Shown one piece after another: positions 26,900-47,207 of a DNA stretch of 64,000 nucleotides (position 1 is its first letter; each line of letters begins with the position of its first letter). The notes below the pieces were generated by a model. The model was not told the origin of the DNA and did no database searches. It was given only the letters and a program-made list of their open reading frames with translations. Source of the DNA: Halogeometricum limi. Lineage in GTDB: Archaea; Halobacteriota; Halobacteria; Halobacteriales; Haloferacaceae. Location: the NCBI RefSeq assembly GCF_900115785.1, contig NZ_FOYS01000003.1, positions 372,001-436,000 of the forward strand, read 5' to 3'. A program made the translations under genes and the position numbers.

Positions 26900-29800
26900 T
26901 CAGTAGTCTATCCGGAGCTCACCATTATTTTGAATAGTGATTTCACCCCTGTCCGACATAGCGGCTAAGTTCGTGAATCGCTGGTCGATGTACACATGTG
27001 GTGTCCCAACCTGACAGACTGTGACGATACAGTAGTCATCTTGCTGCTCTCGTGCCCGGCCATACTCTGGGATTGTTAAATTGAAACTATCCATAGTGCC
27101 GACTGACGACTTTACTTCAATCCATATTTCGTCATTTTCAGAAGGCTGAATTTGAGCCAATAAGCTGTCCGCCTCGTTTGACATCCTGAAGTCTGCGCCC
27201 TCAACCAAAATATCGGAACCAAGGCTAGTGTCTCGTATATGCAGAACACGAACTGTCCAGTCAGGGCCTGTAATTTCGACTCCGGGCACGGCAGTCCCAT
27301 AACGATCCATTGACAACTGTGATTGCGGTTCAAGACCGTCGGAGTCGTGCGCATGCTCGGGAAGTTCCAGAAACGCGGGATTCCAGAACCACGTCACGGT
27401 ACACGGCTCCTCAGCGAGTGCAGTCCGAAGCTCATCAACCAGCGACGTTAGCACAAACTCCTCTCCCCATAGCCCAGCTTTCCAAGCGGCAGATCCACCA
27501 CCGCCGCCTCCACCTCCGCTCCCAGTGCCTCGCCGGGATTTGCTCCCTTCACCTTGGGAACGATCCCGTGAATCGGGTTTGTTTTCAATAGCGGTCCTAC
27601 TGCCTATCGAAGACGGCGAAACCTGCGATTCGAATGTAGATGACTGCGCGTCCGTATTCCGAGCCCCACTATTATGTCTGTTCTCCGATTCCTGATTTGA
27701 GGAGATTGCTTCGGGAGAGTTGGAATTCGAGTCTGCTGTCGAGCGCCTACCAGAGGAACTGTCTTCCACAGGAGACTTGGAAGAAGTGTCTGAGCCCATC
27801 GGCGGTGACTGGCCCGCCGTTTCAGGCTCGGCCGATGCTGGCTCCGAATTTGAAGACGGGTCCGAGGTTTCTGCGGATCCATCCGATGAGTTAGCCTCCT
27901 GAGGCCCCTCGATGGTGGTTGTTTTCGCGTCTCTCTCGTTCGGTTCGTTGGTAGTGGTAGTTATCTCGTCAGACTCAGACTTCGCAACGGACTCAATTGA
28001 TTCTGGACCAGTGGGTTCCGTCTTGGCGTCTGACTTTTTTTCTTGTGTGTCCGTTTCGAATTTCTCAATCGAATGGTCCGTGAACCAAACGAGATTGATG
28101 TCGTGATCGTCGAGATAGGCCTCAAGAAAGTCTGATTCTGCCCCGACTGCTCCAGATAATAACGATCTGAGTTCTCGATATTGGTCCAGAGGGAGTTGCA
28201 GTTCATCTGCAAGCTTCGTTGCTATGTCGTAGTACGACTCGGCCCCGGATGCTCTGAGAATCCGCGTGTTGGTGTGGTCTATGTAGGATTGCAAGGGAAG
28301 GCGCTCGGAGATCTTCTGATTGTTTAACGTATAGTATCCCTGTAGCGCATCATGCTGTTCGACGTGATACCGGCTAAGTGTCGTAAGCTCGTTTAGTTCG
28401 TCGTCTCGATTCCTGGGACTCGTCTCTATAAAACTTTGAGAGACTGTCAATAGCTTCCGGAGTCGGTCATCGTCAACGACCCTGTTCCATTCATCCGCTG
28501 GTTCCAAATTAGTGGCATCGGCAAGATCAAGCTCCACGGCAGCTCGAAGGTTTTCCAGCCCAAGGACTTCCCACAAAGGGATCAGCCGCTTCTGTGTCAG
28601 GTTTTGTGACTCGGGTTGTTGAATTACTCGGTGACCGATCTCTTGTTCTGTCGCCTCCAGAACACCCTCGTCGTAGCAATAGAAATCGATCTCGGTGAGT
28701 GGCACTGTTGTTCCCGAGTGGGTAGGTACGACAGCCTCTTGGCTAAGCCGTTTTAGTGCAGCTAAGTCGCGGAATTCATGCTCACTCAACTCATCAAGTT
28801 CATTCAATAGTTCTCGAAGAGTCTGGTTCCACGCTTTCGATGTCTCGTCGGTGAACTCCGTACCGGAGTGGCTGGCTAGGAAGTCTAGGCAGTCATCTAT
28901 TTCTACCCGCTTCTGTACGCCGACCCTCTCTTGCAGGAATTGGTGGTGACGGGTGTAGAGTGTTGATATTGAGACAAATTGGTCATCGAGACTGATTCCT
29001 TCAAGCACCACTTGTGGTGGCGTTCGGAATTGTGTCTCGGCTGCCTGAACGTACAGAAACGGAGCTTTCCGGAGTTCCGAAAGCAACCGTTCAGCCTCGT
29101 CGTCCGAACAATCGGCCAGACCAGCCTTGAACTGATCGAGCTGATCGTTAACCGCAGTTCGAATTTCACTCGGCTCACCATCACTCCAGACCGTGGGGGC
29201 CTGTGTGAGTAATTTCAGGACAGACGACGGATCTAACCGAGTGTTGATATTCAGACCATCATAGATCGCGTCTGAAAACGGGAGGTCATTGTTGAGGTAC
29301 CGCACGTCAGGCTGTCCCTGTGTTCGAGGGATGTCAAGCAGCAACACTGATGGGGGGCTTTTCGTTCCTGTTTTTGTTGGACACCATGCTGTGTTTCGAA
29401 TCCGATAAGCGAATTTGGACGGACATTGTGTCTCCTGCGATTTCTTGCGGAACGGATTTCCTTTCCCGTACTGGGCTGTGTAGTAGAGTTTCTTATACAG
29501 ACGATCTTCGTAGTAGTCCCAGCACGATGCAAGCATCGTTGCCAGCTCCCAGGACTGTGCCCCCGATTCTCTCCCTTTATCCGGAATGATGTCCAGCAAC
29601 TCTTCGAATGTGTCGCTGATTTCGTGATCAGAGAGCGCGTACCGATACCCCCTCAGCCATGTATCGTAGCTATCTCCCGAGTGTTTCGGTGCTTGCGGAA
29701 TATTAGTCGATGTGTCACCACACGAATCAAGTTCCGCCTCTAACTCGTCCTTATTACGGAATTTTTCACGTGTTTTCGTACCCTCCTCCGTTACTTCGAG

Positions 29801-31930
29801 TTTGTCTCTCACCCCCGCCTTCGTTAAGAAACTCGACCATGGTGATAGTGAGTCTCCTAACTCACGGTATGATGGCGTCACGAACTGCGCAGAGTCGATA
29901 TCCTCAAGAAGTATTTCCAGATCATAGTCCAAGCCATACGCCTTTGGGAGATAGAGCTCTGATGGCTTTTTATACACAGACTCGTCGCTGCTGGATGATT
30001 TAACCCTCAGCCGGATAGCATTCTTCTTACGCGCAACGCTCCGTCGGTGTTTGTTACTGATAACAAACTCCAGAAATGCATCCAACGTCGAATCAGCCTC
30101 GGCGCTTGGATTCTTAAAAGCATCCGCGATTATCTTGGTGATGATGTATTCATCTGCAACGACCGAGAGCCCTAATGCGTTCTCGAAAAAGGAACGAGCA
30201 TCAGCTGCGACTGCTTTGTGATCCTCCGCCTTGCCATTGCCATCCGGCTCGTCAAAAGTAAGGTCTACAAGCGTGATCCGATCAGTGAAAATCTCGTACT
30301 CATCTCCCCCGCTATCGGGCGGAAGAACCGGATCCGAATCCGTGTCATTGCTGCTGACTACAGCACCGGTTTGGAGTGGAACCAGCGGAATTTGCTTAAC
30401 TGCACTAAGGAACTCTCTCCGCTCATCATTGTAGGATCGTTTATCCCGATATGTGTCTTCCCACAATTCGTTGAAAAGGGCAGCCAAACGTAACAACTCG
30501 GAAGTTGACTTTTTGCGGTAAACATTACTATCCTGCCCAGCTTGGGCAAGACTATCAATCGTAAGCTCCTCAAGCAACCCCAACCCGACGAGATCATTGA
30601 GACACCGCTGCGTCAGCGAGTCTGCAGGATAATTAGTGTCCTCTCCGAGCAATTCTTGAACATCTGACTCAGAGAGCAGCTCTTCCAGTCGGGAGTCAGG
30701 CACAATGATCTGCTCAGGAAGGTAGTATTCCCCATCCTGACCTGGAATGCATTCGTGCTCCCTCAGAACATCCAAGATATCTTCCTGAATGCGCTGAAGA
30801 TGGGAATCAAGTGTTCTTCGAGTTGGCACAAGTTCCAGGAACGTGGTTGTGGATGAATCCCACTCTAAATAATACTCGACTGCCCTTTCAAAGACTGCAC
30901 TCACGAGGCCGAAAATCCACTGGTTGTACGGGCTCTTGGTATTATGCAGGCTGGAACGGTCAGAGTCAAGAAGAAAATCGGCTTGAATATCGAACGGAAT
31001 ATCCAGTTCCGTTTCTGTGGGGAAAAAATTGAACAGCCGACTGGGATCGTCTCCAGAGATTGGATTACCATCCTTATCCACGGGGAACGAAATCTTGATC
31101 GGCACCGGTTCATCTCGGAACTCCTCTTCGTTTTCTAAAGCGCGATGCTTGACTAACTCGGAAAATTCAGCCTCCGGTGGGACCTCCTCAATACCGAAAA
31201 TATGACGTCTCTCATGGAGGGTTTCATTCTCGTAAATCTCAACCTCAGTGAGCGCTCCCCTGGCCGTTTCTTCCCGTCGATAGGTTGTCCGCTCGCCGTG
31301 ATCAACGACACTGATTTTCGAGACGTTCCGGAGATACGGCATCAATCGAGGGAGAGACTCAATCTGCCCCATGAGCTGTGACCGATCATACTCCGTAAGG
31401 TCGGTGAAAGGCAACCTGACCTCGGTCGCAGGTGCGTACTTAATCTCATCAACGGCCGTCTCATCTACGAGATGTAGAGGTAGAACGCATCGGTCCCGCT
31501 TGAAGCCAAAGCGGAGGAATCCCGAACGAATCTGCGGGTGATCCGAGACGCTGAAAACAGACTTGAACCCACGGCCGAAGTGGCCAATATACCCCGGCTC
31601 TTGCTTTGTACTCTGTCCGATATGACATATGGCTTCGAACTCTTCTTCCAGAAGTGGTCGGCCATCATTCCGAACAACGAGTTCATCTTCTGAAATTAAG
31701 ATCTCGACTGTCTCACACTCCTTTACGTCATCAGCATTCTGCAACAGCTCAGGAATCACCTGTGCTGGAGTGTCAAGGTCCCGCTTGACATCCCGGTCGT
31801 AGTTATGAAACAGATCCTGAATGACATCATTGTCACTCTCATATCCCTCTAGGAGAGTCTGCCGGCTTTGCTCTACGAGCTCTCTTGCTTCATGTGGCGT
31901 TTGTGGGTGTTTTGGCGGGATTTCGGGCAT
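26900..31930 (-). CDS. Giant sacsin-type GHKL ATPase with C-terminal DUF3883 nuclease-like domain
   Basis: A 1676-aa protein. The N-terminus carries an Hsp90/sacsin-type ATPase: ELLQNADDVKECETVEI (N-box), LVVRNDGRPL, and IGHFGRGFKSVFSVSD (glycine-rich lid). A long helical middle of about 1100 residues is followed by a Ser/Glu/Pro-rich low-complexity linker (about 1270-1460), an eight-glycine run and a DUF3883-type domain. In that domain GSDILVEG and EIWIEVKSS give the D...ExK of PD-(D/E)xK nucleases. Such ATPase-nuclease giants are found in archaeal and bacterial defence islands. The ATP-driven part probably controls the nuclease; this is inference. Confidence 0.75.
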   Translation of the reverse strand: MPEIPPKHPQTPHEARELVEQSRQTLLEGYESDNDVIQDLFHNYDRDVKRDLDTPAQVIPELLQNADDVKECETVEILISEDELVVRNDGRPLLEEEFEAICHIGQSTKQEPGYIGHFGRGFKSVFSVSDHPQIRSGFLRFGFKRDRCVLPLHLVDETAVDEIKYAPATEVRLPFTDLTEYDRSQLMGQIESLPRLMPYLRNVSKISVVDHGERTTYRREETARGALTEVEIYENETLHERRHIFGIEEVPPEAEFSELVKHRALENEEEFRDEPVPIKISFPVDKDGNPISGDDPSRLFNFFPTETELDIPFDIQADFLLDSDRSSLHNTKSPYNQWIFGLVSAVFERAVEYYLEWDSSTTTFLELVPTRRTLDSHLQRIQEDILDVLREHECIPGQDGEYYLPEQIIVPDSRLEELLSESDVQELLGEDTNYPADSLTQRCLNDLVGLGLLEELTIDSLAQAGQDSNVYRKKSTSELLRLAALFNELWEDTYRDKRSYNDERREFLSAVKQIPLVPLQTGAVVSSNDTDSDPVLPPDSGGDEYEIFTDRITLVDLTFDEPDGNGKAEDHKAVAADARSFFENALGLSVVADEYIITKIIADAFKNPSAEADSTLDAFLEFVISNKHRRSVARKKNAIRLRVKSSSSDESVYKKPSELYLPKAYGLDYDLEILLEDIDSAQFVTPSYRELGDSLSPWSSFLTKAGVRDKLEVTEEGTKTREKFRNKDELEAELDSCGDTSTNIPQAPKHSGDSYDTWLRGYRYALSDHEISDTFEELLDIIPDKGRESGAQSWELATMLASCWDYYEDRLYKKLYYTAQYGKGNPFRKKSQETQCPSKFAYRIRNTAWCPTKTGTKSPPSVLLLDIPRTQGQPDVRYLNNDLPFSDAIYDGLNINTRLDPSSVLKLLTQAPTVWSDGEPSEIRTAVNDQLDQFKAGLADCSDDEAERLLSELRKAPFLYVQAAETQFRTPPQVVLEGISLDDQFVSISTLYTRHHQFLQERVGVQKRVEIDDCLDFLASHSGTEFTDETSKAWNQTLRELLNELDELSEHEFRDLAALKRLSQEAVVPTHSGTTVPLTEIDFYCYDEGVLEATEQEIGHRVIQQPESQNLTQKRLIPLWEVLGLENLRAAVELDLADATNLEPADEWNRVVDDDRLRKLLTVSQSFIETSPRNRDDELNELTTLSRYHVEQHDALQGYYTLNNQKISERLPLQSYIDHTNTRILRASGAESYYDIATKLADELQLPLDQYRELRSLLSGAVGAESDFLEAYLDDHDINLVWFTDHSIEKFETDTQEKKSDAKTEPTGPESIESVAKSESDEITTTTNEPNERDAKTTTIEGPQEANSSDGSAETSDPSSNSEPASAEPETAGQSPPMGSDTSSKSPVEDSSSGRRSTADSNSNSPEAISSNQESENRHNSGARNTDAQSSTFESQVSPSSIGSRTAIENKPDSRDRSQGEGSKSRRGTGSGGGGGGGGSAAWKAGLWGEEFVLTSLVDELRTALAEEPCTVTWFWNPAFLELPEHAHDSDGLEPQSQLSMDRYGTAVPGVEITGPDWTVRVLHIRDTSLGSDILVEGADFRMSNEADSLLAQIQPSENDEIWIEVKSSVGTMDSFNLTIPEYGRAREQQDDYCIVTVCQVGTPHVYIDQRFTNLAAMSDRGEITIQNNGELRIDY

Positions 31931-32237: not shown

Positions 32238-33308
32238 CTACAACGCGGAATTCACCTCCTGTAGCGCGTCGATTGCGTGCTGCAGATGCATACGCAGTTC
32301 ATCGTCGGCACCGCTCTCGGTCACAGCCTGACTTGCATCTTCACCGTTCTCATCCGAGGGCCGCGTTTCAGAGTCCGGCTCTGGCGTCCCCCACGTTTCC
32401 GTGCGGCCCAGCGAGTCAGGGTCTTGTTCGGTCACCGCATCAAGCCGCTGCTGTTCATCGCTCTCTCCCGCCGTTTTGTCGGTCGCTGTGGTGCTGCGTT
32501 CCGACCGGTCGCTGTCGGTCGGTCGCCCGCCGCGACTGAATGCTGACAGTGGGAAGTCGTACGCACAGGCGCGCTTGTGCTTGTTGAACGTCGTCCGGCG
32601 CGACACGTCGAGCACGTCAATGATGTCGCTACGGTCACACCCGCGGTCGAGCGCCTGCCGAACCTGCTCGTCCTCCATCCGCTGGAGCAACAGCTGCGGG
32701 TCGTCCGGGATGTGGCCGCGAGCCGAGTTCTCGATTTGTTCGACGAGCCCCCATTCCCCGGTTTCGACGTCCTTATCCACGATCTGCCGGTCGCGTGTCT
32801 TGACGAGGTTGTCGAGGCCCATCAGCACCCACAGGCGCTCGCGGATAGCTGACACCGACAGGTCCGTCGGGAGTCCGGACGCGATATCGCCCGTTCGCGC
32901 CGGACCGTGATCCGCGACGTACCGCAGGATCTCGATGTCCTGCGGAAGCAGCACGGTCTGATCCGCCTCCGTGATTTCGACCGGTGCGTCGTCTGGTGTT
33001 GCTTTCTGATGGAACCAGCTGTGACACGAGCGGCACAGCAACGTCAGATTCTCTAAGTCGTGCTCGTCCATCCCGTCCGGATTCCGTTCGATGTGGTGGA
33101 CGTGCAGCGTCGCTAATCCGCCTTTCTGCGGCCCGTACCGCCCGCACACTTGGCATCGGTGCCCGTAGTCCGACAACACGGTTGCTCGCGTCTCCGGGTC
33201 CACCGTTTCGTGGCACTCTTCAGGCGTCAATCGCTCCGCCGGTTCACCGCTCAATTCGCTCGTCTCCGGTCTCGTCGCGTCGTGATCGTGTGACTGTGTT
33301 TCTGTCAT
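32238..33308 (-). CDS. HNH endonuclease with winged-helix domain
   Basis: A 356-aa protein. Residues about 40-110 form a zinc-containing HNH domain: HRCQVCGRYG, HVHHIERNPDGMDEHDLENL, LLCRSCHSWFH. A winged helix follows (about 135-200, QDIEILRYVADHGPARTGDIA), then a second HTH-like part (DIIDVLDVSRRTTFNKHKRA) and an acidic low-complexity tail. This architecture recurs on haloarchaeal plasmids and proviruses. It lies 178 bp downstream of the RAMP operon on the same strand, and may or may not be part of it. Confidence 0.8.
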   Translation of the reverse strand: MTETQSHDHDATRPETSELSGEPAERLTPEECHETVDPETRATVLSDYGHRCQVCGRYGPQKGGLATLHVHHIERNPDGMDEHDLENLTLLCRSCHSWFHQKATPDDAPVEITEADQTVLLPQDIEILRYVADHGPARTGDIASGLPTDLSVSAIRERLWVLMGLDNLVKTRDRQIVDKDVETGEWGLVEQIENSARGHIPDDPQLLLQRMEDEQVRQALDRGCDRSDIIDVLDVSRRTTFNKHKRACAYDFPLSAFSRGGRPTDSDRSERSTTATDKTAGESDEQQRLDAVTEQDPDSLGRTETWGTPEPDSETRPSDENGEDASQAVTESGADDELRMHLQHAIDALQEVNSAL

Positions 33309-33486: not shown

Positions 33487-34152
33487 TCACATCGACCTCG
33501 TTGGTGTGAGCGATTTCACCTTGAACTCAGACTTCGAACAGTACCGTTCGGCGACGCGACCAAGCGCCCGTGTCCGCAGCACATCCGCCACGTTATGCAG
33601 CACAAGCTCCGCGAACCGTCCGTCCTCGAACGCGGCGACGGCCTCTTTGCTGTCCGCGAACGGGTCCAGTTCACCGTACGACCCGTCGCACAGCACGTCG
33701 TACGCCGTCACGAGATCACCGTTCTCGTCACCATCCACCGTCGTGTTGAAGCGATCCGTGACGACCGGCATCACATCAGCGTACGGCACGTCCACGAACG
33801 GCCATCTTAAATCAGCCGCCGCGAACCGCGTCCGCAGGAACGGCAAGTCGAACCCGCCGTTCCACCGCTCACCATTGTACGCCACGAGCAACACGTCACT
33901 ATCACTGAACCGCTCCGCAACGAACTCCGACACCGCGACCAGCAACTGCTGCTCAGACGCGTGCGTAGACACACGCACGAGCGTCTCCGACACCTCGGAC
34001 TCAACCACCGACTCAATCCCCGGCGCGTCCCGCTCGCCAGTCTGCACGAACACGCGCACACCCATCGGCACCGCGAACCCAACCGTCGTCACCTCGTCAG
34101 CAACGTTGAAGCCAGTCGTTTCGATGTCAAACGCGACTTGCTCCAACACCAT
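33487..34152 (-). CDS. DEDDh-type 3'-5' exonuclease, RAMP operon gene 6
   Basis: A 221-aa RNase H-fold exonuclease. Exo I is FDIETTGFN (Asp and Glu), exo II is YNGERWNGGFD, and exo III is HNVAD (HxxxD), giving the DEDDh set. The ATG at 34152 overlaps the stop of the Cas5-like gene (TGATG); a GTG one codon upstream is an alternative. Translational coupling to a RAMP gene makes it the probable nuclease of the module, in place of Cas10 HD or Cas3. RNA or DNA preference is unknown. Confidence 0.78.
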   Translation of the reverse strand: MVLEQVAFDIETTGFNVADEVTTVGFAVPMGVRVFVQTGERDAPGIESVVESEVSETLVRVSTHASEQQLLVAVSEFVAERFSDSDVLLVAYNGERWNGGFDLPFLRTRFAAADLRWPFVDVPYADVMPVVTDRFNTTVDGDENGDLVTAYDVLCDGSYGELDPFADSKEAVAAFEDGRFAELVLHNVADVLRTRALGRVAERYCSKSEFKVKSLTPTRSM

Positions 34153-35081
34153 CACGCATCACCGCCCGAAGCGGCAGCCGTACGCTCCGGCACCCGATCC
34201 GCACCGCACGGGCGCAGCCGGAACTCGCCGAACCCGAACCGTGAATGCGTCCCGACACGCGTTACACCGTTCTTCGCCGTCCGCACCGCGTCGCCCCCGT
34301 CGTACTCGACGACCTGCCCGTGATCAACCGTCGCCACAGCGTGCGACTCGTCACCATTCACGAGGCGTGTCTCCCGACGACGCAACCCGTCAGCCGGCAC
34401 GCCCCACCACCACGGTACCGACTGCGAATCCGCGTCCGGAGCCTCACTCGCCAGGACGTACGGCGTCACAAGCTCTAACTGCAACCCGTCAGCCTCTCGC
34501 ACCCCAGAGTAATCCAACGCATCGAGATCCACGAGCTGCGTCTCCACCACAGACACCTCCCCGAACCCGTAGTTCCGCGCCCCACCGAGCTGCAATCCAT
34601 CGAGCACGTCCTCGGACACCGGCACGACACCGTCCACGTCACTGTGCACGTAACAGTGCACGTACCACGACACCGAACGGCGTTGCTTCCGCTGGCCTTC
34701 CGGTCGCCCAAACCACGTCTCCGGCGCGAATGCCACACGCCCACCATGCGACTGCACCGGCAGCACGTTATGCGCATCCCGCGGCCGCGACGACAGTAAC
34801 CACCGCTGCGCCGCATCCCTGAACACGAACAAATCCTCATACGCATTCACCTCAGGCAGCGACTTCCCGAGCTTCCCCGCGTACCCATCCTGCGAGGCAT
34901 CCTCCGGGAACTCACCGTACTCACCCGGCACGAACACGCCGTGACTCACGTGCAGCGACCGTCGCGTCCGCTCATCAACACGCGACGCAACCGCATTGAA
35001 CACCGCGTTCCCCGACACGAAGTACGGATGCCCGAAGTACGGCGACTCCACCTCGAACAACACCTGCTGTACCACCGTCAC
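34152..35081 (-). CDS. RAMP-superfamily protein (Cas5-like), RAMP operon gene 5
   Basis: About 309 aa from a GTG at 35081 (VTVVQQVLFEVESP); an earlier GTG at 35123 would add 14 residues read through a direct repeat. It begins with a ferredoxin-like strand (VLFEVESPYFGHPYFVSG) and has two glycine-rich loops, LQLGGARNYGFGEV (about residue 150) and THSRFGFGEFRLRP near the C-terminus; the latter is the hallmark G-loop of RAMPs such as Cas5 and Cas6. No catalytic His triad for crRNA processing is evident, so binding RNA or its 5' handle is more likely. Its neighbours are another RAMP and an exonuclease. Confidence 0.62.
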   Translation of the reverse strand: MTVVQQVLFEVESPYFGHPYFVSGNAVFNAVASRVDERTRRSLHVSHGVFVPGEYGEFPEDASQDGYAGKLGKSLPEVNAYEDLFVFRDAAQRWLLSSRPRDAHNVLPVQSHGGRVAFAPETWFGRPEGQRKQRRSVSWYVHCYVHSDVDGVVPVSEDVLDGLQLGGARNYGFGEVSVVETQLVDLDALDYSGVREADGLQLELVTPYVLASEAPDADSQSVPWWWGVPADGLRRRETRLVNGDESHAVATVDHGQVVEYDGGDAVRTAKNGVTRVGTHSRFGFGEFRLRPCGADRVPERTAAASGGDA

Positions 35082-35118
35082 ACCACCACCCCCGCGAATC
35101 CACTGCCACACCCACCTG

Positions 35119-35191
35119 GACACACCCCGTTTCCAGTGTCATCTACGCAGCGACCACCCACTCCCAGACACACCCTGTTTCCAGTGCCATC
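35119..35191. repeat. Two 25-bp direct repeats, 48-bp period, before the Cas5-like gene
   Basis: Copies at 35119-35143 and 35167-35191 differ at two positions and share the core GTTTCCAGTG flanked by GACACACCC and an imperfect CAT box; 23 bp of unrelated sequence separates them. They occupy the only sizeable gap (150 bp) inside the RAMP operon. They might be a transcript-processing or binding site, or a chance tandem duplication. Confidence 0.6.
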
Positions 35192-35231
35192 GCCGAAATC
35201 ACGCGAACCAGGCTCGCTGCCGCCTGTCCAG

Positions 35232-36023
35232 TCACACGCCACGCGACTCACCTCCCAGGACAGCACCACTCGTCGCCGGCGTCGACGACGTGAACGCCGC
35301 CACGAACTCCTCGATGTACTGGAGCGCCGTCGACCACGACCGAATCCTTCTGAGCTGCGCATCCAACACGCGCCACTCCCTCGACTCACCCACATCAAAC
35401 GGTAGCGCCGGGAGCCGCGACCACACATCCGCAAACGACCGCGCCGGCACATCACCAAGCCGCGCCGCCACCCGGTCACCCGGCTCACCCGTCACCGTCA
35501 ACGCGAACGAGTCCGTCGCCAGCACCGTTCGATGCGGCGTTACTGCATCCGCGTCCGCAACCGCCAGGTACACGTCGCCGAACTCGAACCCAGCCCGGTA
35601 ACTATCCAGCAACGCCGCTACGAGCAACGTGTGGTACTTCAGCGACGTGTACGGGTAATACGGCGACTCATTGACGCCAGCCGGCACCGACGACGCCAAC
35701 CACGCCGCATGCGCCGCCTCAGCATCCGCAATCCCAACCAGTTCCCGCAACGACTCCCCAGCACCCCCAGACACGCTCGTCGACACAACCTCACCAGTCA
35801 ACAACGACACTCGCCGCCACGACGCCTGCGCGTCCAGCGTCTGCTCCGGCGACCCGCGCGGCCGACTCAACAACGCCGCATCCCCATCCGCACCCAACGG
35901 TACGTCCTCGTTCACCTGGACCTCGTTGAACCACAACGCCGCGGCCTCATGTCCCCGCGACCGAGCCTTATGCACGTCGTGCCTGTACACCGCCACCATC
36001 GGCTCGACTCCCGACTCAGTCAT
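35232..36023 (-). CDS. Unknown protein of the RAMP operon (gene 4)
   Basis: A 263-aa protein from the ATG at 36021-36023 (MTESGVEPMVAV), which overlaps the end of the small acidic gene by 8 bp. No family recognised. Notable stretches are SPYYPYTSLKYHTLLVAALL around residue 120, which could be a helix of a RAMP-associated subunit, and LRRIRSWSTALQYIEEF near the C-terminus. The open frame extends upstream to 36260 but is arginine-rich there and is a shadow of the overlapping gene. Its conserved-looking position makes it a likely subunit of the same complex. Confidence 0.65.
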   Translation of the reverse strand: MTESGVEPMVAVYRHDVHKARSRGHEAAALWFNEVQVNEDVPLGADGDAALLSRPRGSPEQTLDAQASWRRVSLLTGEVVSTSVSGGAGESLRELVGIADAEAAHAAWLASSVPAGVNESPYYPYTSLKYHTLLVAALLDSYRAGFEFGDVYLAVADADAVTPHRTVLATDSFALTVTGEPGDRVAARLGDVPARSFADVWSRLPALPFDVGESREWRVLDAQLRRIRSWSTALQYIEEFVAAFTSSTPATSGAVLGGESRGV

Positions 36024-36264
36024 CCTCGCTACCCCGCTGATCCTCGTCACCAGCACGCTCCTGCACTGACCGAAGCTCCGACACCGGCGAACACAACTCA
36101 TCCAACCCATCACCACCCGGAACCTCTTCGTCCGGAGCGCTCTCAGACGCACACCGGTCCTGCGCCGACCGCAGCGACGACTCCACTGGCTGCAACTCAT
36201 CGAGACCCGCATCCTCACCCGCACCATCATCTTCCTCACACGGCGGTTCACGCTCGTCACTCAC
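36016..36264 (-). CDS. Small acidic protein of the RAMP operon (gene 3)
   Basis: An 82-aa, Glu/Asp/Ser-rich protein without cysteines in a zinc pattern. It starts at a GTG overlapping the Cas7-like stop (GTGA) and ends 8 bp inside the next gene. It contains two related segments (LDELQPVESSLRSAQDR and LDELCSPVSELRSVQER), an internal duplication of about 30 residues. Possibly a small-subunit-like or DNA-mimic protein; unproven. Confidence 0.55.
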   Translation of the reverse strand: MSDEREPPCEEDDGAGEDAGLDELQPVESSLRSAQDRCASESAPDEEVPGGDGLDELCSPVSELRSVQERAGDEDQRGSEDD

Positions 36265-37235
36265 GCCGACTCACCTCCAGACTCATCATCACCAGTCGGC
36301 ATCGGCACATCACCATCACGAGCCGCCACACGCGCCTGCAACGTCCTGACGAACTCCGGGCGGCACTCCGACGCCCACACCTCATCTTTCTCTTCCATCG
36401 CTTGTGTCGTCGCCTGTGCGCGATTGAACACGCGGCGCACTTCTGACTCCGTGTACAGCGGATTAATCACCCACACATCACCGATCCCCGCCCCGAAATT
36501 CCGCGCACCACCCAGCTGGAACTCGAACTGGTCACTATGCGCGTCAAGGAACGACACGGCCTCCAACAGCAACCCGACGAACTCTGGCTTCAACTCCCGG
36601 AGCGTCAACTTCCACGTCCCCTCAACGTTCCCGAGCACGCCACGATCCGCTTGCCGCAGCGGCTGCCCACCATCCTCCTCGTTCCGCGACCGCACCTGAT
36701 TCGAGATCTGTCGGAAGTGCGCCTCCGCCTCACCGTCCAAGACATCCACCTGCCGCCGGATCGGCGAAAACGACACCGGGCGACGCAACAACTTCCCCGG
36801 CTTGTCACCGAACCCGCCGAACAAATCATAGAGGACACACCCATCCTCGTGTCCGTCAAGGCATGCGCCCTTTTCATGGTACCCCGAGTCGAGATCACGC
36901 TCGTACACGCTCGCACGCATGTAATCCGCATTCGGCTCACCCGGATGGCACGCCGTCGCTCCAGCTGTCTGGACAACATACTCACACCCGTGCCGCAACC
37001 ACCCGCTCAGAGTGAACGGTGAAATTTGTCCTCCGATCTGGTTCATCGGATCGTCCGCTTCGTACCTGTCTGCCGACGCATGATGCCGATCCGTAACGAT
37101 GCCGTCTCCCGGGGACAGCAGGTCGATTTCGAGCCCAACGTACACGTGCGGCAGCAACATCTCCTCCACTGACCGCGGCATGTCCAACTCGACACCGAGA
37201 TGCGAATCCTCAAATCCCGAATCGCTCGACGTCAT
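36261..37235 (-). CDS. RAMP-superfamily protein (Cas7/Csm3-like), RAMP operon gene 2
   Basis: A 324-aa protein. GGQISPFTLSGWLRHG near residue 70 matches the RAMP 'SSLKGxLR' helix, CVLYDLFGGFGDKPGK near residue 130 matches the Csm3/Cmr4-type LFG loop, and LGGARNFGAGIGDVWV near residue 245 is the glycine-rich RAMP loop. It would form the backbone of an RNA-guided or RNA-binding complex. The ATG overlaps the stop of the zinc protein (ATGA). No Asp equivalent to the Csm3 cleavage residue could be assigned with confidence. Confidence 0.7.
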   Translation of the reverse strand: MTSSDSGFEDSHLGVELDMPRSVEEMLLPHVYVGLEIDLLSPGDGIVTDRHHASADRYEADDPMNQIGGQISPFTLSGWLRHGCEYVVQTAGATACHPGEPNADYMRASVYERDLDSGYHEKGACLDGHEDGCVLYDLFGGFGDKPGKLLRRPVSFSPIRRQVDVLDGEAEAHFRQISNQVRSRNEEDGGQPLRQADRGVLGNVEGTWKLTLRELKPEFVGLLLEAVSFLDAHSDQFEFQLGGARNFGAGIGDVWVINPLYTESEVRRVFNRAQATTQAMEEKDEVWASECRPEFVRTLQARVAARDGDVPMPTGDDESGGESA

Positions 37236-37768
37236 CGCTCACCACCCCAGAACAACCCGCGGACCACATCGTCACCTGGCCGACCTGCACGACGCTGCGC
37301 CTCGCCAAAAGACACCTTGGTCAGCGACCCGGGCGTATCCGGTTTCTCAACGTCAGCCGCAACGTTCTCGGGCGAACTACCGCCGTCAGGAACCAGCCTG
37401 ATCGACTTCATCGACGCCGCACTCACCGCCAGAACATCCGGTTCTAGCAGCACCGGCCACGCCGACTGCGTCGCCCCATCAGAACACCACCCTACTCGGC
37501 CCCCAACAATCAACTCCCGCACACCAACCGTGAACACGCCAGGACGCTCATGCCGACCATCACCACACACCACATGGCCGACCTCGTACCGAACCGACCC
37601 CGCCGGCCGGAACACGTACACAACAACCGCAGCACCCTCGTGAAGAGAGGAACCGCACACTTGACACGTCGCGGCCCCCTCCCCGAGCGAAATATACTCT
37701 ATTTGATGTATGTCTTCAATAAGTGGTCTGTCGCTGCCTTCTTGTGTTTCCGAATTTGATTTTCTCAT
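37232..37768 (-). CDS. Zinc-binding protein, RAMP operon gene 1
   Basis: About 178 aa from the ATG at 37766-37768 (MRKSNSETQ); an in-frame GTG at 37867 would add 33 residues and is possible. Zinc ligands are probably ATCQVCGSS, then VVCGDGRH with a following Cys (GWCSD). The middle is beta-rich (VVVYVFRPAGSVRYEVGHVV). First gene of the six-gene overlapping operon. Not recognised as a known Cas protein; it may be a divergent subunit or nucleic-acid-binding adaptor. Confidence 0.6.
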   Translation of the reverse strand: MRKSNSETQEGSDRPLIEDIHQIEYISLGEGAATCQVCGSSLHEGAAVVVYVFRPAGSVRYEVGHVVCGDGRHERPGVFTVGVRELIVGGRVGWCSDGATQSAWPVLLEPDVLAVSAASMKSIRLVPDGGSSPENVAADVEKPDTPGSLTKVSFGEAQRRAGRPGDDVVRGLFWGGER

Positions 37769-37855
37769 GGGTTCTCGGAGTGTATTCGGAACCCAGCCTG
37801 GGTGCTGCAACACCCGGGCACTTCTGTCGATCAGTGCCCAACGGCTGAGTTCGTG

Positions 37856-37907
37856 TCCATTAGTCACTCGTCTATTGGCATAAGCCTTTGGACAACCGAC
37901 TAATGGA
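37856..37907. promoter_or_regulatory. Inverted repeat in the divergent RAMP/wHTH promoter region
   Basis: TCCATTAGTC (37856-37865) and GACTAATGGA (37898-37907) are perfect 10-bp inverted repeats 32 bp apart. Between them lies GGCTTATGCC (minus strand), a plausible promoter element. The layout suggests an operator bound by the wHTH protein encoded on the right. Confidence 0.5.
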
Positions 37908-37952: not shown

Positions 37953-38183
37953 ATGGGCGACCGGGATCGGGACGAAGAAAGTGGAAAATTTACTGAGGAA
38001 TACCCTGCCCAAGAGTTTCTGGAAGCCTTAGTCAATCTCGGTCCCAGTGGAACGACGGACATTGCCGATTATGTCGGCTGTGACCGTCGAACCGCCTACT
38101 TGAAATTGAAAACACTCGAAGAAGATGGAGAAGTTAGAAGCAGAAAAGTAGGGAATTCGCTCCTCTGGGAGCGCGATGAATAG
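37953..38183 (+). CDS. Winged-helix regulator
   Basis: A 76-aa DNA-binding protein. FLEALVNLGPSGTTDIADYV, then GCDRRTAYLKLKTLEEDGEV and a short wing (RSRKVGNSLLWER), is a MarR/ArsR-type winged helix. It is divergent from the RAMP operon and convergent with brxL, so it may repress the RAMP genes through the inverted repeat between them. Confidence 0.8.
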   Translation: MGDRDRDEESGKFTEEYPAQEFLEALVNLGPSGTTDIADYVGCDRRTAYLKLKTLEEDGEVRSRKVGNSLLWERDE

Positions 38184-38204: not shown

Positions 38205-40232
38205 TTACTCTAGTTCGATTGCTTTACTGGCTGCATCGAGCGGATCGGTGTAGAATACGAGCTGGAGCTGATCCAGCAGTTCATCCGGAATCTTTGCCAG
38301 ATCTTCTTTGTTCTTCGCCGGGAGTAACACTGTCTTTGCCCCCGAATCTGCAGCCAACTGCAGCTTATCGATCAAGGAACTCACCGCAACTAATTCACCC
38401 ATGAGACTCATCGCGCCAAGGACAACGGCTTGTGATCGAACTGGTCTATCGAGTATCCCTGAGACTATGCCGACAAGAAGTCCAACGCTCGTTTCGCCGC
38501 CTTCGTTCGCGTCGGATGGATTGAGCACCTGGACGTTGATGTTGTACTCATCCAGCGTTTCATCACGGCGGAGCTCGCGCATATTCGCTTGGAGGTAGTC
38601 GCACGCAGTCTCGAACGACTCTTTCATCTTCTTCCCTGGCGTCCCCGAGATGTTCGTCTTCCCAGAACCGGGGAGTGTCTGGGTTTCGATGCGGAACGGT
38701 GCGTGACGTCCTTCACTTTCGCCGATAGTGTAGACAGTACCTGCTTGTTGCGTCCCGGGGGGAATGAGCGCCTCATCGGCCTCCTCGGGGACCGGAACGT
38801 AGAGTTCTTCCTTCGTGGCTAAGTCCAAATACGAGAACTCGACCGCCCGATACTCCATTCCACCCATCCGCTTCAGCTGTTCTTTGACGCGGCGACGTCC
38901 CTCCATAGCGAATTCGAGGTATTCGCGGAGCTCTTCTTTCGTGTATTCTCCGTGAGGGTGGAGTAATTTGAGCAGACCAGAAACAGTCTTCCGGACGGCC
39001 CTTTCGTCACGTTGGTTCAGGTGGTCTCCGAATGCGAACTCCTCGTTGATCGCATCGCCGTAGGATTCTTTCCGGAGCTCACGGACGAACTCGGCGAAGT
39101 AATCCACGATAAATCCGAACTGATCGCCGAAGAACTCGGAGCGCATCTTCGGGACTTCCCAGCCCGGAAGGTAGTAGTGGAAGCGGTCGATGAGGGCGAG
39201 GTCCTGCATATCATCCGGGAACGGCTCGAAGAGGTGAGAGCTCTTGAGGACACCTTCGACGTCCAAGTCGATGTTTCCAACGTAGACCATCGAGGCCTGG
39301 GCAGTGAGTTCCTCAGTTCCGCGTGAGAAGCTCCCAGACTCCATGTAGTCTTTCAGCATCTGGACTGCTTCCGAGTCGCTGAACTGGAGGCCACCAACCT
39401 CGTCGAAGGCAACAACGTCCCAGCGGCCGACGAGTCCGATGCGTCCCGTGTTGAGGTTCAGAAAGAGCTTCGCAACGGTGGTTTTTCCACCGGAGATGAG
39501 AATCGAGTGGGGACTGATTTCACGGTAGAGATAGCTCTTCCCCGTTCCGCGGGGCCCTAACTCGACGTAGTTGTAGTTGGACTCCACGAGAGGGAGACAC
39601 CGAGTCAGGAAGAGTAGCTTTTCCCGGTCGCTGAACGCGGATGGGTCGTACCCGACACTCTGGAGGAGAAGGTCCATCCACTCGTCGCGTGTGAATTCTC
39701 GACGACGATCCTTCAACTGGTCGAGGTCGAGGTTCGACACCTGGATTGGTTTGAACGACTCGATGCCGAACAGGCTCTTCGGGCTGTTCGCGTTGTCAGG
39801 AAGGTACTCCAGATCGATGATGGCCCAGACACCCCCACCCAGGAGCTTCGGGTGTTTGCTGACGAGATGTTCGTGGACCTCGACATCGTTGAGTCCGAGG
39901 TTGACGAAGGATCCGATGTAGGCGTCTTGCTGCTCGTCGAGTCTGACGGTTACTTTGTCGATGACACGGTACCGCCCTCGCTCGCGTACTTCGCTTTTGA
40001 CGTACTCGGCCTCATCAGGGCGAACGTAGTGCTTCGACAGAATCTGTTTGACTTTTTCGAGCCCCTCCTCCAGTGATTCCTCATCGTCGGTGGCGCAGTA
40101 TTGTCCGATGAGATATTCCAGAACATAGGTGGGGACGTTCACTCCCGACTTGATATCTTGAACGAGATCCTTCCGGACGACGCGTCCGGGAAAGACGTCG
40201 AGAGCTTTCTGATCGACGTCCTCAGTAGTCAT
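38205..40232 (-). CDS. brxL: BREX protein BrxL (Lon-like AAA+ protein)
   Basis: A 675-aa AAA+ protein of the BREX phage-exclusion system. Walker A is GPRGTGKSYLY near residue 222 and Walker B WDVVAFDEVGGL near 270; the C-terminal 170 residues are a Lon-type domain with GGETSVGLLVG (candidate Ser) and SSLIDKLQLAADSGAKTVLLP (candidate Lys). In type 1 BREX BrxL binds DNA as a ring-shaped complex and helps block phage replication. Last gene of the operon, 124 bp after pglZ. Confidence 0.9.
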   Translation of the reverse strand: MTTEDVDQKALDVFPGRVVRKDLVQDIKSGVNVPTYVLEYLIGQYCATDDEESLEEGLEKVKQILSKHYVRPDEAEYVKSEVRERGRYRVIDKVTVRLDEQQDAYIGSFVNLGLNDVEVHEHLVSKHPKLLGGGVWAIIDLEYLPDNANSPKSLFGIESFKPIQVSNLDLDQLKDRRREFTRDEWMDLLLQSVGYDPSAFSDREKLLFLTRCLPLVESNYNYVELGPRGTGKSYLYREISPHSILISGGKTTVAKLFLNLNTGRIGLVGRWDVVAFDEVGGLQFSDSEAVQMLKDYMESGSFSRGTEELTAQASMVYVGNIDLDVEGVLKSSHLFEPFPDDMQDLALIDRFHYYLPGWEVPKMRSEFFGDQFGFIVDYFAEFVRELRKESYGDAINEEFAFGDHLNQRDERAVRKTVSGLLKLLHPHGEYTKEELREYLEFAMEGRRRVKEQLKRMGGMEYRAVEFSYLDLATKEELYVPVPEEADEALIPPGTQQAGTVYTIGESEGRHAPFRIETQTLPGSGKTNISGTPGKKMKESFETACDYLQANMRELRRDETLDEYNINVQVLNPSDANEGGETSVGLLVGIVSGILDRPVRSQAVVLGAMSLMGELVAVSSLIDKLQLAADSGAKTVLLPAKNKEDLAKIPDELLDQLQLVFYTDPLDAASKAIELE

Positions 40233-40356
40233 TATCTACGAGGAACAGAGCCGGGGGCATATTGGTGTCGGTCATGCTAAGTGGAACACCGATACGAATA
40301 ACCAATATCCGCTTCTGGGCTATTCACTCACGCCAATTACTGTGATTCACTGCTGC

Positions 40357-42783
40357 TTAGACGTCGAATCCCATATCGTCGTCTCCGAAGAGTAGATCGA
40401 GCTCTACTGTTTTCCGCGTGATCGTTTCTCGGGTGTCGGTGTCGATGACTTCGAACTGGACGGAACTCTCGCCGGAGATCGCTCCCTGTTTGAGCCGAAC
40501 ACGCTCTCTGTTGGTTCCTGGTGAGATCTCCATCGTTACGGGGTCTGCAACCGGTTCGTCGTCGATGTTCGCGCGGATTTCCAGTATCGGAGCTGGGTCG
40601 AAGGCCACTTGTCCGCTCTTGGCTTCGATCTCGACAGAGATTATCGAGTTCGTGATCGGGTCTGGGATCGAGACGTCGTAACTGATCGACGCGCTTTCTT
40701 CGATCTCGCCAGTGGTCACAGTGAGACACGGGACGAGGAGTTCTTGGAGTGAAATCCCGCCGTGGAAGTACTGCATATTCCCTCCCTGGGCCTTGAAGCA
40801 GGCGACACTCCGTGGGAAGAGCAACTTAAGTTCCGGGGCGTTGATGCCGAGATCGGCCAGCGCATCGGAATCGACCTCGATGAATTCGTCCGTATCGACG
40901 AGTGGAGCATCACTGTCGGCGGCTGCGAATCGTCGTTTGACAACTGGTGCGAGGTCGGGTGATTCGACTTTGAGGTCGTCGGACAACCGATCCGTGTAGA
41001 GGAACCCGTGGTCGCTCGTGATGACGAACCGAGTGTATCCGGCCTGTTTCAGTCGCTGGACTGTCCGTTCGACGTCGTCGACGTGGGAAGCGACCTGGCT
41101 GAAGGCCGCGTCGTCGTCGAGGCTCTCGCCGAGTTTGTCTATCGTTCCAGAGTAGACGACTCGGGGGACAGGATCGGACTCCGTCAAGTCCTCCAACGAG
41201 ATGTTGCTCACCTCGTCCATATCGACCACTTCGAAGCCCGCGGCGCTGAGTCGTTCGACACGGTCTGCTTTCCCTGCCATCTCTTCACCGCCGCTGGTCA
41301 CGACGAGGTCATCATCTTCGAGTGAGAGGCCGAGTTCCCCGGGGAGGTGTGCGGCCATCCCAACCTCGGTGATCGAGGGCAGTGCCGCGCTGACTGCGCT
41401 CAGATCTTGCTCGAAGTCAGTTCGCCGCCCGAGATTCTGTTTGATCGCTTCCGCGAGTTCGTAGCGAAGCCCGTCACAGATGATGATCGCGGTTCCGTCC
41501 TCAAGATCCGCGAACTCATCATAGAACGAGGTCTGGGGTGTCCCGAGGGTCGGATCATCACTCAGGATGTCCGCCAGCGGGCGGTTTACCCCTTGGAGGA
41601 AGGACATGTAGTGTTGCGTGACCCGCTGTTTGACTGTGGTTTCGTTCGGATAGGGGAACGTGGCTTTCTGCGTGGCGTTGATGTACTGCCGATAGGCCGC
41701 ATCGATTTGCCACCACCCGTTGTCACTCGTGTACTTCTGGGCGAGTTCCGAGGAGGAGAGCGTCTTGGCTTCGTCGGCGTCGATGGTTCCGATTCGCTGG
41801 AGGGTTTCGACCGCCAAGACTGGTACCGACCAATCGACGAGGTCCTCGTTGCTCCAGAAGCTATCCTGGCGCTCAGTAACTGTCTGCTGGAGGTCTGCCG
41901 CGATATCGGGGAGGTCGGCGTAGGTCTCCTCAGCGAGTCGTTGCATCACGAGCCGGATGAGACCCATGTCGATACCCTTGAACGCCGTCGTGTCCCAGTG
42001 AATCCGGTCGGAGTCGATGACCGCCTTCGCAAGGTCGTAGTCCTCCGCGATCCGCTGTGCGTAGCGCGTGAACTCGGCAGGAGCGTACTGCTGCCACTCG
42101 TCGCAGAACGCCGCAGCAGCGCGGGTGTCGTCAGCCGCGAGTTCGTCGTACCGTGACGTCGGTGCTCGGCTGGCCACCTCGCCGAAGAGGAGCTGTGTCG
42201 CTAGCTCTTTCGGATCGAGTCCTGCGGTGACACCGTACTCCTCGCGGAGCTGGGCGTCCCAGGCGTCGGCCATCGCGTTGTCCTCGATTGTCTCGCGGTA
42301 CTCTTCCGGGTTCGAAAGGTAGGTTCGAACCCAGTCGTCGGCCGCCGGGCCAGCAGTGTCGAAGAGAACGCAGAAGAACGCCAAGCGTTGAACCTCGCGG
42401 TTCTGTCCCCAGTCCTCGTACGCGTCGGGAATCTCTTCGTCGTGTTCGACGAGGAACTGCGTCACGGGCGTGTCGTCGATGTCCTGGCCGACGCGGTACT
42501 GTCGTCCGAGTGCGTGGACGTCGCGGAACCACTCGGCGTCGTTGCGTGACTCGGGGATGTAGAACAGCCAGTTCCGCTCGTAGTTCGGATCCTCCTCGTG
42601 GAGGCGGCGCTTCAGTTCGAAGTAGCTGCCATCGTAGCGTGCAAGCGTGATACCGTCAAGTGCAGCTTCGACCTCGTCGAGGACGCCCTTGTACTTCTCC
42701 TGGGCATCGTACCACACCCAGACTGGGTGTCGGTCGAACTTCTGCTGGAGTTCAGTGATAATGCTATCCGCGAGATCTCCCAT
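40357..42783 (-). CDS. pglZ: BREX phosphatase-like protein PglZ
   Basis: An 808-aa protein with the alkaline-phosphatase-superfamily core of PglZ: IIICDGLRYELAEAI near residue 432, the SITEVGMAAHLPG segment, and VITSDHGFLYTDRL near 590, whose Asp and His are expected metal ligands. The N-terminal PVWVWYDAQEKYKGVL is also PglZ-like. PglZ is a hallmark of all BREX systems and interacts with PglX. The C-terminal 150 residues form a beta-sandwich-like tail. Preceded by the TBP gene with an 81-bp gap. Confidence 0.92.
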   Translation of the reverse strand: MGDLADSIITELQQKFDRHPVWVWYDAQEKYKGVLDEVEAALDGITLARYDGSYFELKRRLHEEDPNYERNWLFYIPESRNDAEWFRDVHALGRQYRVGQDIDDTPVTQFLVEHDEEIPDAYEDWGQNREVQRLAFFCVLFDTAGPAADDWVRTYLSNPEEYRETIEDNAMADAWDAQLREEYGVTAGLDPKELATQLLFGEVASRAPTSRYDELAADDTRAAAAFCDEWQQYAPAEFTRYAQRIAEDYDLAKAVIDSDRIHWDTTAFKGIDMGLIRLVMQRLAEETYADLPDIAADLQQTVTERQDSFWSNEDLVDWSVPVLAVETLQRIGTIDADEAKTLSSSELAQKYTSDNGWWQIDAAYRQYINATQKATFPYPNETTVKQRVTQHYMSFLQGVNRPLADILSDDPTLGTPQTSFYDEFADLEDGTAIIICDGLRYELAEAIKQNLGRRTDFEQDLSAVSAALPSITEVGMAAHLPGELGLSLEDDDLVVTSGGEEMAGKADRVERLSAAGFEVVDMDEVSNISLEDLTESDPVPRVVYSGTIDKLGESLDDDAAFSQVASHVDDVERTVQRLKQAGYTRFVITSDHGFLYTDRLSDDLKVESPDLAPVVKRRFAAADSDAPLVDTDEFIEVDSDALADLGINAPELKLLFPRSVACFKAQGGNMQYFHGGISLQELLVPCLTVTTGEIEESASISYDVSIPDPITNSIISVEIEAKSGQVAFDPAPILEIRANIDDEPVADPVTMEISPGTNRERVRLKQGAISGESSVQFEVIDTDTRETITRKTVELDLLFGDDDMGFDV

Positions 42784-42864
42784 TAAAACTCCTTTCCTAG
42801 GTTAGGCTGAAGGTTGTTTCGGGTAGTCTTCCGGTCACCTATGGACGACAACCATTCCGTCACA

Positions 42865-43404
42865 TTATACTAGAGCATCTAAATCTTCCTTCAAGCTCTG
42901 AAATGCTTCCTCTGCCATATCAATGTCCTTTGCTCCAGTGACCACCACTTTACCGGATGAAAATATCAAAATCACTACAGGGGTGTCGTCAGGTCGAAAA
43001 ACAAGACCGGGGAACTGTTCAGGCTCATACTCCGTATACTCTAATCCAAGACCAATTGCGAGCGCGTTTAGGTTCTGGACCTGGTCTAATTCTCCCGTAC
43101 ACACGTAATTCTGCATAGAGAACCATTCATCCTCGGGTTCACCGAGAACCCCCTCATCAGTAAGGAGTTTCAGGAATTGCTTTCTACAGCTATATGCTTC
43201 TTCATCGGATTTTGACCCAGTGATAATGTACTTCCCCGTCCTGTATACCGTTATTAGTGGCTCCACTCCTTCGAGCCTTACATACGCTCCTGGATACTTA
43301 TCTGGGTCAAACTCAACTTCCTTGACATCAGTTGCTAGGCGATTTAGATCAATCTCTATCCCTAAATCACCCGACCCTACTGCATTAACTACTTCAAGAT
43401 TCAT
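42865..43404 (-). CDS. TATA-binding protein homologue inside the BREX operon
   Basis: A 179-aa protein with the two pseudo-symmetric saddle repeats of TBP: PGAYVRLEGVEPLITVYRTG, KYIITGSKSDEEAY in the first half, and PGLVFRPDDTPVVILIFSSG, KVVVTGAKDIDMAEEAF in the second. Length matches archaeal TBPs (about 185 aa), and the N-terminus (NLEVVNAVGSGDLGIEIDLN) aligns with the usual start. It is AT-rich, like pglX before it (18-bp gap), and is followed by pglZ. Haloarchaea use several TBPs to direct alternative promoters, so it may drive BREX or host promoters on infection. Role inferred. Confidence 0.88.
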   Translation of the reverse strand: MNLEVVNAVGSGDLGIEIDLNRLATDVKEVEFDPDKYPGAYVRLEGVEPLITVYRTGKYIITGSKSDEEAYSCRKQFLKLLTDEGVLGEPEDEWFSMQNYVCTGELDQVQNLNALAIGLGLEYTEYEPEQFPGLVFRPDDTPVVILIFSSGKVVVTGAKDIDMAEEAFQSLKEDLDALV

Positions 43405-43422
43405 GATTGAAAAGACACTATC

Positions 43423-47094: not shown

Positions 47095-47197
47095 GGATAT
47101 CAGAGGGTTGCGCACTGCCACGAAACGGGCGGGACGGCAGTACGCTGTGTCGGGATTCCCGCCCTCGATGACATACCAGCGACAAGCAGTTGGCGTG

Positions 47198-47207
47198 TCT
47201 TATATTG
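47198..47207 (-). promoter_or_regulatory. Possible internal promoter before pglX
   Basis: CAATATAAGA on the minus strand in the 220-bp gap between the membrane-protein gene and pglX; this is the largest gap in the BREX operon. A start site about 25 bp downstream would leave an 80-nt leader. Confidence 0.35.

What the first reader, a model, noticed from the sequence alone, without database searches (positions are those of the whole stretch)
33487..37768. Cas10-less RAMP operon with its own exonuclease
Six overlapping genes encode a zinc protein, a Cas7/Csm3-like RAMP (LFG loop, G-rich loop), a small duplicated acidic protein, an unknown 263-aa protein, a Cas5-like RAMP with two G-rich loops, and a DEDDh exonuclease. 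No Cas10, Cas3, Cas1, Cas2, Cas6 catalytic triad or array is in the window. It resembles what I recall as 'HRAMP' (haloarchaeal RAMP) loci from CRISPR classification surveys, whose function was unknown. The gene overlaps (ATGA, GTGA, TGATG) show one translational unit, and the exonuclease appears to be the effector. Seen: motifs and overlaps. Inferred: an RNA-binding complex with exonuclease output.
Basis: partly seen in the sequence, partly recalled or inferred. Interest (0 to 1): 0.88.

Follow-up and report, generated by a model that had tools for sequence, protein, structure and literature searches.

The report
Array-less CRISPR relative with leader RNA
This salt-loving archaeon carries a CRISPR-derived protein machine without any CRISPR array; the tools show that it probably keeps a shrunken form of the 'missing' Cas10 protein and is headed by a conserved folded RNA that recurs in more than half of haloarchaeal genomes and is absent from the RNA family library, which gives concrete leads on how such array-less systems are run.

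Summary
The operon is real and is a haloarchaeal RAMP (HRAMP) locus. The 324-aa protein folds as Cas7; the 309-aa protein is a Cmr3/Csm4-type Cas5. 'Cas10-less' is probably wrong: the 263-aa protein looks like a shrunken Cas10 (model matches Csm1/Cas10 chains, Z 12.8 over 242 of 263 residues; six colinear motifs) without the GGDD cyclase half. The gap before cas5 holds a missed seventh ORF. No Cas1 or typical CRISPR repeat was found in the genome.

New: a ~90-nt structured leader RNA (three-way junction, strong covariation, a competing pairing beside the start codon) heads the operon. It occurs in 216 of 391 haloarchaeal genomes, in none of 101 other genomes of the phylum searched, and is absent from Rfam 15. 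It also precedes other small, often zinc-finger genes, so it is most likely a cis-acting expression switch that HRAMP uses; a role as the complex's RNA partner is not excluded. Defence function is inferred, not shown.

The parts
37857..37906 (.). Promoter region: palindrome CCATTAGTC...GACTAATGG around a TATA-like box, probable operator of the divergent wHTH (function inferred)
   Evidence: sequence; similar palindromes in relatives
37766..37878 (-). Structured leader RNA: P1 37852-37843 with 37798-37789; P2 37839-37834 with 37821-37816; P3 37815-37811 with 37804-37800; competing strand A' 37774-37769 next to the AUG
37232..37768 (-). zn: zinc-ribbon-like protein, 178 aa, first gene of the operon
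36261..37235 (-). Cas7-like RAMP protein, 324 aa
   Evidence: model and fold searches
36016..36264 (-). Small acidic protein with a duplicated LDEL..-type motif
35232..36023 (-). p263: probable shrunken Cas10 (HD-like part and Palm-1 remnant, no GGDD)
35078..35242 (-). Seventh ORF (54 aa) in the gap before cas5, with two DNA repeats CACTGGAAACRGGGTGTG at 35186-35169 and 35138-35121
34152..35081 (-). Cas5-like RAMP protein of the Cmr3/Csm4 type, 309 aa
33487..34155 (-). DEDD-type exonuclease, 222 aa (DIE, FD, HNVAD motifs)
32238..33308 (-). HNH nuclease with helix-turn-helix-like C-terminal part, 356 aa; last gene of the cassette
37953..38183 (+). Divergent wHTH regulator, conserved upstream of most clade A operons

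Best explanation
The operon encodes a stripped-down type III-derived ribonucleoprotein: a Cas7 backbone, a Cas5 cap, a mini-Cas10 that keeps an HD-type motif but has lost the cyclic-nucleotide synthase half, plus a zinc protein, a DEDD exonuclease and an HNH nuclease. Its mRNA begins with a conserved folded leader RNA. Proposed working: the leader is an expression switch. When P1 forms (strand A with B) the start of the first gene is free; when B pairs with the copy of A beside the AUG, translation is shut. Together with the divergent wHTH this keeps a nuclease complex off until needed. The complex then binds RNA that does not come from a CRISPR array and brings the nucleases to invader nucleic acid. 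Shown by computation: protein identities, operon layout, leader RNA, its covariation and spread. Inferred: the switch, RNA binding, defence.
For: Cas7 fold; Cas5 = Cmr3 profile in 34/34 members; mini-Cas10 fold and colinear motifs; nuclease domains; conserved order zn-cas7-p263-cas5-exo-HNH in about 59 loci. Leader RNA: 95.9% of pair cells kept, 193 double-sided changes against 51 +- 10 in shuffles; competing pairing 24 against 8.4 +- 2.4; P2 stem 5.0 against 4.31 +- 0.06; always ends at a start codon; 216/391 haloarchaeal genomes, 85/103 with cas7 against 131/288 without, p 4e-11. No Cas1, PF10040 Cas6 or I-B repeat in the 99.8% complete genome. BREX next door in 10 of 59 clade A loci.
Against: The leader RNA is not HRAMP-specific, so it need not have to do with the complex itself. 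In many sequences A' matches B at only three of four core positions, so the switch is less certain than the junction fold. Profile-profile comparison of the 263-aa family with Csm1 was not significant (p 0.27, aligned only at the HD motif). No expression, RNA-binding or infection data.
Confidence: 0.6

Rival explanations
1. The leader RNA is cleaved off and is the RNA component (fixed guide or scaffold) of the HRAMP complex, rather than a switch for the first gene.
For: The genome has no canonical crRNA source found and only one copy of this RNA, at the HRAMP operon; nearly all clade A loci carry it; HRAMP genomes are enriched for it.
Against: It occurs in 131 genomes without a detectable cas7 and in front of unrelated genes; it always ends at a start codon and its last strand covaries with P1, as a cis element would; only about 10 of 43 clade B loci show it within the stretches fetched.
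Confidence: 0.12
2. The exonuclease is the sole effector of an RNA-binding RAMP complex that lost Cas10.
For: Tight linkage and overlap with cas5 in about 52 of 58 clade A loci; invariant catalytic motifs.
Against: Absent from 43 clade B loci and 6 clade A loci; an HNH nuclease usually accompanies it; p263 looks like Cas10.
Confidence: 0.1
3. The repeats between p263 and cas5 are a degenerate CRISPR-like array giving guides.
For: Repeats at a fixed place, specific to these loci, 1-5 copies with differing sequence between; strong DNA-level conservation.
Against: 28 of 32 spacings are multiples of three and a +1 frame stays open to the cas5 start in 31 of 35 loci; absent in many functional-looking loci; the window's gap has no phage match.
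Confidence: 0.04
4. The 263-aa protein is not Cas10-derived; the structural match reflects a generic helical arrangement.
For: Foldseek E is only 0.12, HMM searches find nothing, profile-profile p 0.27.
Against: All first 27 Foldseek hits are Cas10 chains; VIA Z up to 12.8 over 242 residues stands well above the usual 7-8 background; six colinear motifs; it sits where Cas10 would in a Cas7-Cas5 operon.
Confidence: 0.13

Closest known systems
HRAMP (haloarchaeal RAMP; Makarova et al. 2019, reviewed in PMC8730458 and PMC12669027)
   Same: Diverged Cas5 and Cas7, uncharacterised protein, nucleases, no array, haloarchaea
   Different: Here the third core protein is assigned as a shrunken Cas10, and a DEDD exonuclease plus HNH pair, a translated repeat gap and a structured leader RNA are described. 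The 2019 paper could not be read here
Type III CRISPR-Cas (Csm/Cmr)
   Same: Cmr3/Csm4-type Cas5, Cas7 fold, Cas10-like HD and Palm-1 part
   Different: No GGDD cyclase half, no Cas6, Cas1 or array found; added exonuclease and HNH
Type VII CRISPR-Cas
   Same: Reduced type III derivative with Cas7, Cas5 and a Cas10 remnant (PMC12669027)
   Different: Type VII keeps arrays and the C-terminal part of Cas10 fused to a beta-CASP nuclease; here the N-terminal part is kept and the nucleases differ
Riboswitches and structured 5' leaders
   Same: Junction fold plus a competing pairing beside the start codon
   Different: No Rfam family matches; ligand unknown; found only in haloarchaea so far

Membership tests
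HRAMP | Cas7 homologue | tested here: met
   Model matches Cas7-family subunits of CRISPR complexes, Z up to 11.1
HRAMP | Cas5 homologue | tested here: met
   34/34 members match Cmr3 profiles, best 2.3e-8; fold not modelled
HRAMP | Uncharacterised conserved third protein | tested here: inconclusive
   A conserved 263-aa protein is present in nearly all loci; identity with the published family could not be checked because the 2019 paper is not held
HRAMP | Associated nucleases, often HNH or PD-(D/E)xK | tested here: met
   HNH Pfam E 4.9e-10, linked in most clade A loci
HRAMP | No CRISPR array | tested here: met
   No Cas1, no PF10040 Cas6, no I-B-type repeat in the genome; other repeat types not searched exhaustively
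HRAMP | Restricted to haloarchaea | tested here: inconclusive
   All relatives found are haloarchaeal, but genomes outside were covered only by one pattern-based scan
Cas10 (263-aa protein) | Cas10 HD/Palm fold | tested here: met
   VIA Z 12.8, 242 residues, rmsd 4.8, Csm1 chains; Foldseek alone E 0.12
Cas10 (263-aa protein) | Significant sequence-profile similarity to Cas10 | tested here: inconclusive
   Six colinear motifs in a MAFFT alignment with eight Csm1 proteins, but profile-profile p 0.27 and no PADLOC hit
Cas10 (263-aa protein) | GGDD cyclase motif | tested here: not met
   Absent; the protein ends before Palm 2. So it is not a full Cas10, at most a derivative
CRISPR array (repeats before cas5) | Non-coding repeats separated by unrelated spacers | tested here: not met
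   28 of 32 spacings multiples of 3; +1 frame open to cas5 in 31 of 35 loci
Riboswitch (leader RNA) | Conserved covarying fold with a competing pairing that could act as expression platform | tested here: met
Riboswitch (leader RNA) | Specific small-molecule ligand and regulated expression | not testable with these tools
   needs experiments

The most novel reading that the evidence does not exclude
The leader RNA is the missing RNA partner of array-less HRAMP complexes: a fixed, non-CRISPR guide or scaffold cut from the 5' end of the operon's own message, with the same RNA fold elsewhere in haloarchaeal genomes marking further partners or natural targets beside start codons.
Probability: 0.12. 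Interest if true: 0.95.

Novelty: new variant of a known kind. Interest (0 to 1): 0.77.

Why it matters
How HRAMP works is an open question in CRISPR evolution. A shrunken Cas10 would tie HRAMP to type III and make its HD site a mutational target. The leader RNA is a strongly covarying structured RNA found in more than half of haloarchaeal genomes that no Rfam model covers; few natural RNA switches are known in archaea (own knowledge), and this one can be tested at once by probing and reporters in Haloferax. It offers either a way to keep a nuclease-rich cassette silent or a first candidate RNA partner for an array-less system.

Tried and rejected
(1) Mini CRISPR array: CACTGGAAACRGGGTGTG repeats before cas5 looked like one, but spacings are multiples of three and a +1 frame is open to the cas5 start in 31 of 35 loci, so the region is translated. 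In other loci the gap carries hairpins with constant GTGGTGG loops and variable stems (mean stem 5.6 against 3.8 +- 0.18 with shuffled mates); unexplained. (2) Guides against phages: the window's gap has no match in the phage records. (3) Cas7 and p263 profiles against PDB sequences: nothing significant. (4) p263 against Pfam, NCBIfam and PADLOC: nothing; hhalign with Csm1 not significant. (5) Rfam on the leader, also with a permissive threshold: nothing. (6) Leader as an HRAMP-only RNA: rejected by its wide occurrence. (7) Literature: a survey of structured RNAs in CRISPR operons does not mention HRAMP (PMC9067536); the 2019 HRAMP paper is not held.
Full report
WHAT IS THERE. Upstream lie a divergent wHTH gene and a BREX system (brxL 38205-40232, pglZ, pglX, brxC, brxA). 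Downstream lies a TmtA-like protein with a sacsin domain. The genome (3.6 Mb, 99.8% complete) has one cas7 of this kind, no Cas1, no PF10040 Cas6 and no match to a haloarchaeal I-B repeat. The PF10040 control did not ring in Haloferax volcanii, so the Cas6 test is weak.

RELATIVES. 103 of 391 haloarchaeal genomes have a cas7 relative. Gene-order analysis of 103 distinct loci shows two clades. Clade A (cas7 62-90% identical, about 59 loci) has zn-cas7-[small]-p263-cas5-exo-HNH and usually the divergent wHTH. Clade B (cas7 53-62%, 43 loci) has cas7-p263-cas5 and no relative of this exonuclease or HNH within the stretch fetched. One outlier (L181, 45%) has exo and HNH. The exonuclease is present in about 52 of 58 clade A loci with enough sequence, a few as fragments. 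So the core is Cas7, p263 and Cas5, and the nucleases are clade-specific additions; other nucleases of clade B were not characterised. In 10 clade A loci the cassette is near brxL (window, L105, L113, L009, L011, L014, L015, L140, L151, L013). In L105, DNA identity to the window is 94% over pglZ and 91% from brxL through cas7, but 71-75% over p263, cas5 and the exonuclease and 81% over HNH, which suggests partial replacement within the cassette.

PROTEINS. The Cas7 model (pLDDT 74) hits Cas7-family subunits of type III, IV, I-D and VII complexes: best Foldseek E 5e-6, VIA Z up to 11.1. All 34 Cas5-like proteins tested match PADLOC Cmr3 profiles, best 2e-8. The p263 model is confident (pLDDT 88.5). 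Foldseek finds nothing at E below 0.001, but its first 27 matches are all Cas10 chains of Csm or Cmr complexes; VIA-align gives Z 12.8 over 242 of 263 residues. An alignment with eight archaeal Csm1 proteins shows six colinear motifs: RHDVHK with LHDIGK; GADGDAALLSR with ADWLSSGER; RLSLLTGE with PLxSIFS; YTSLKYHTLLVAAL with ISLYDHLKTTAAIA; the strand before GGDISGIQ; and LRRIRSWSTALQYIE with KRLRGRSFWLTLL. The protein ends before the GGDD cyclase half. Profile-profile comparison alone was not significant, so the claim rests on fold plus motif order; I put it at about 0.85. The HH pair of the Csm1 HD site is not evident, so HD activity is open. The exonuclease has invariant DIE, FD and HNVAD motifs; H-x3-D is the DEDDy spacing with H in place of Y.

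THE GAP BEFORE CAS5. The 150-nt gap in the window carries two copies of CACTGGAAACRGGGTGTG, 48 nt apart, with 0.03 expected by chance in the window. About 20 clade A loci carry 1-5 copies at the same place. I first took this for a mini array. It is not: 28 of 32 spacings are multiples of three, and in 31 of 35 loci with a long gap the +1 frame is free of stops up to a stop that overlaps the cas5 start. It is therefore a translated, highly variable ORF. Its composition (rich in Gly, Arg, Cys and Trp) is unlike typical acidic haloarchaeal proteins (own knowledge), and the repeat is conserved at the DNA level in more than one reading frame. In other loci the gap holds hairpins with a constant GTGGTGG loop and variable complementary stems. 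A translational-coupling bridge or an RNA-binding platform are possible; neither was tested.

THE LEADER RNA. Upstream of the true zn start codon nearly all clade A loci have a 90-nt element: P1 (10 bp in the window) encloses two hairpins P2 and P3, followed by about 25 nt ending GAACCC-AUG; the window sequence folds 3.65 sd better than shuffles. A covariance model built from 57 sequences finds it in 216 of 391 haloarchaeal genomes and 72 of 86 genera. In a sample of 120 genomes of the phylum the nine with matches are all haloarchaea; none of the 101 others matches. On 96 aligned sequences P1 and P3 keep 95.9% standard pairs, with 193 double-sided changes against 51 +- 10 in shuffles and at most 30 in slid controls. 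The alignment was fitted to these helices, which favours them, but the earlier MAFFT alignment shows the same changes. P2 is supported by a mate-shuffling test. The 3' strand of P1 (GGGUUC) can also pair with the GAACCC beside the AUG; this pairing was not in the model and covaries too (24 against 8.4 +- 2.4 double changes), with clear cases such as GGGC/GCCC, GGUU/AACC and AGGU/ACCU, though many sequences keep only three of four core pairs. Rfam 15 has no match, also at a permissive threshold. In every match inspected the element ends at the start codon of an ORF. Besides HRAMP zn these are SWIM zinc-finger proteins, small zinc-ribbon-like proteins, a ~100-aa family and others. It occurs in 85 of 103 genomes with cas7 and 131 of 288 without (p 4e-11). 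About 10 of 43 clade B loci showed it upstream within the stretch fetched.

INTERPRETATION. The most economical reading is a haloarchaeal cis-acting leader, riboswitch-like or protein-bound, that HRAMP clade A uses to control translation of its first gene, in a cassette also guarded by a wHTH regulator. A second reading, that the leader is the RNA partner of the complex, is not excluded: the genome offers no canonical crRNA source that I could find, and the leader is single-copy there. Defence function is inferred from type III ancestry, nucleases, patchy and plasmid distribution and the BREX neighbourhood. What RNA the complex binds remains unknown.

KNOWN VERSUS NEW. HRAMP itself is known: PMC8730458 describes its composition and PMC12669027 lists it as array-less and derived from type III. 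New as far as the held literature shows: the Cas10 assignment of the third core protein, the translated repeat gap and the leader RNA family. The original 2019 HRAMP paper could not be read, so priority on the first two needs checking.

Noticed in passing
window 35078-35242; L008, L110, L120, L124, L131, L133, L136, L143 between p263 and cas5: Variable translated gap with DNA-level repeats (CACTGGAAACRGGGTGTG) or hairpins with constant GTGGTGG loops and variable complementary stems; function unexplained.
   Followed up: partly
window 38205-53754; L105, L113, L009, L011, L014, L015, L140, L151, L013: BREX system next to the HRAMP cassette; brxL is 93-99% identical between loci where HRAMP genes are much more diverged.
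   Followed up: partly
L253 positions 52, 6875, 8628, 9722: Four copies of the leader RNA within 12 kb, at least two in front of SWIM-like zinc-finger ORFs.
   Followed up: no
window 26900-31930: Large TmtA-like protein with sacsin and NOV domains next to the cassette, a likely further defence gene.
   Followed up: no
window 37765-37706 and the same position in L222, L226, L227: The first ~15 codons behind the leader share a QE-like pattern and in several loci a GC hairpin (GCCGGA...TCCGGC), so the RNA element may extend into the coding region.
   Followed up: partly
window 36016-36264 and relatives: Small acidic protein made of one or two copies of an LDELQPP..ELR..QE-like motif, perhaps a short docking peptide.
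   Followed up: no
L182 and L183: Incomplete HRAMP loci without cas7 in the ORF scan: p263-cas5-exo in L182, leader, zn and a p263 fragment in L183, each with a type-1 repeat hit.
   Followed up: no
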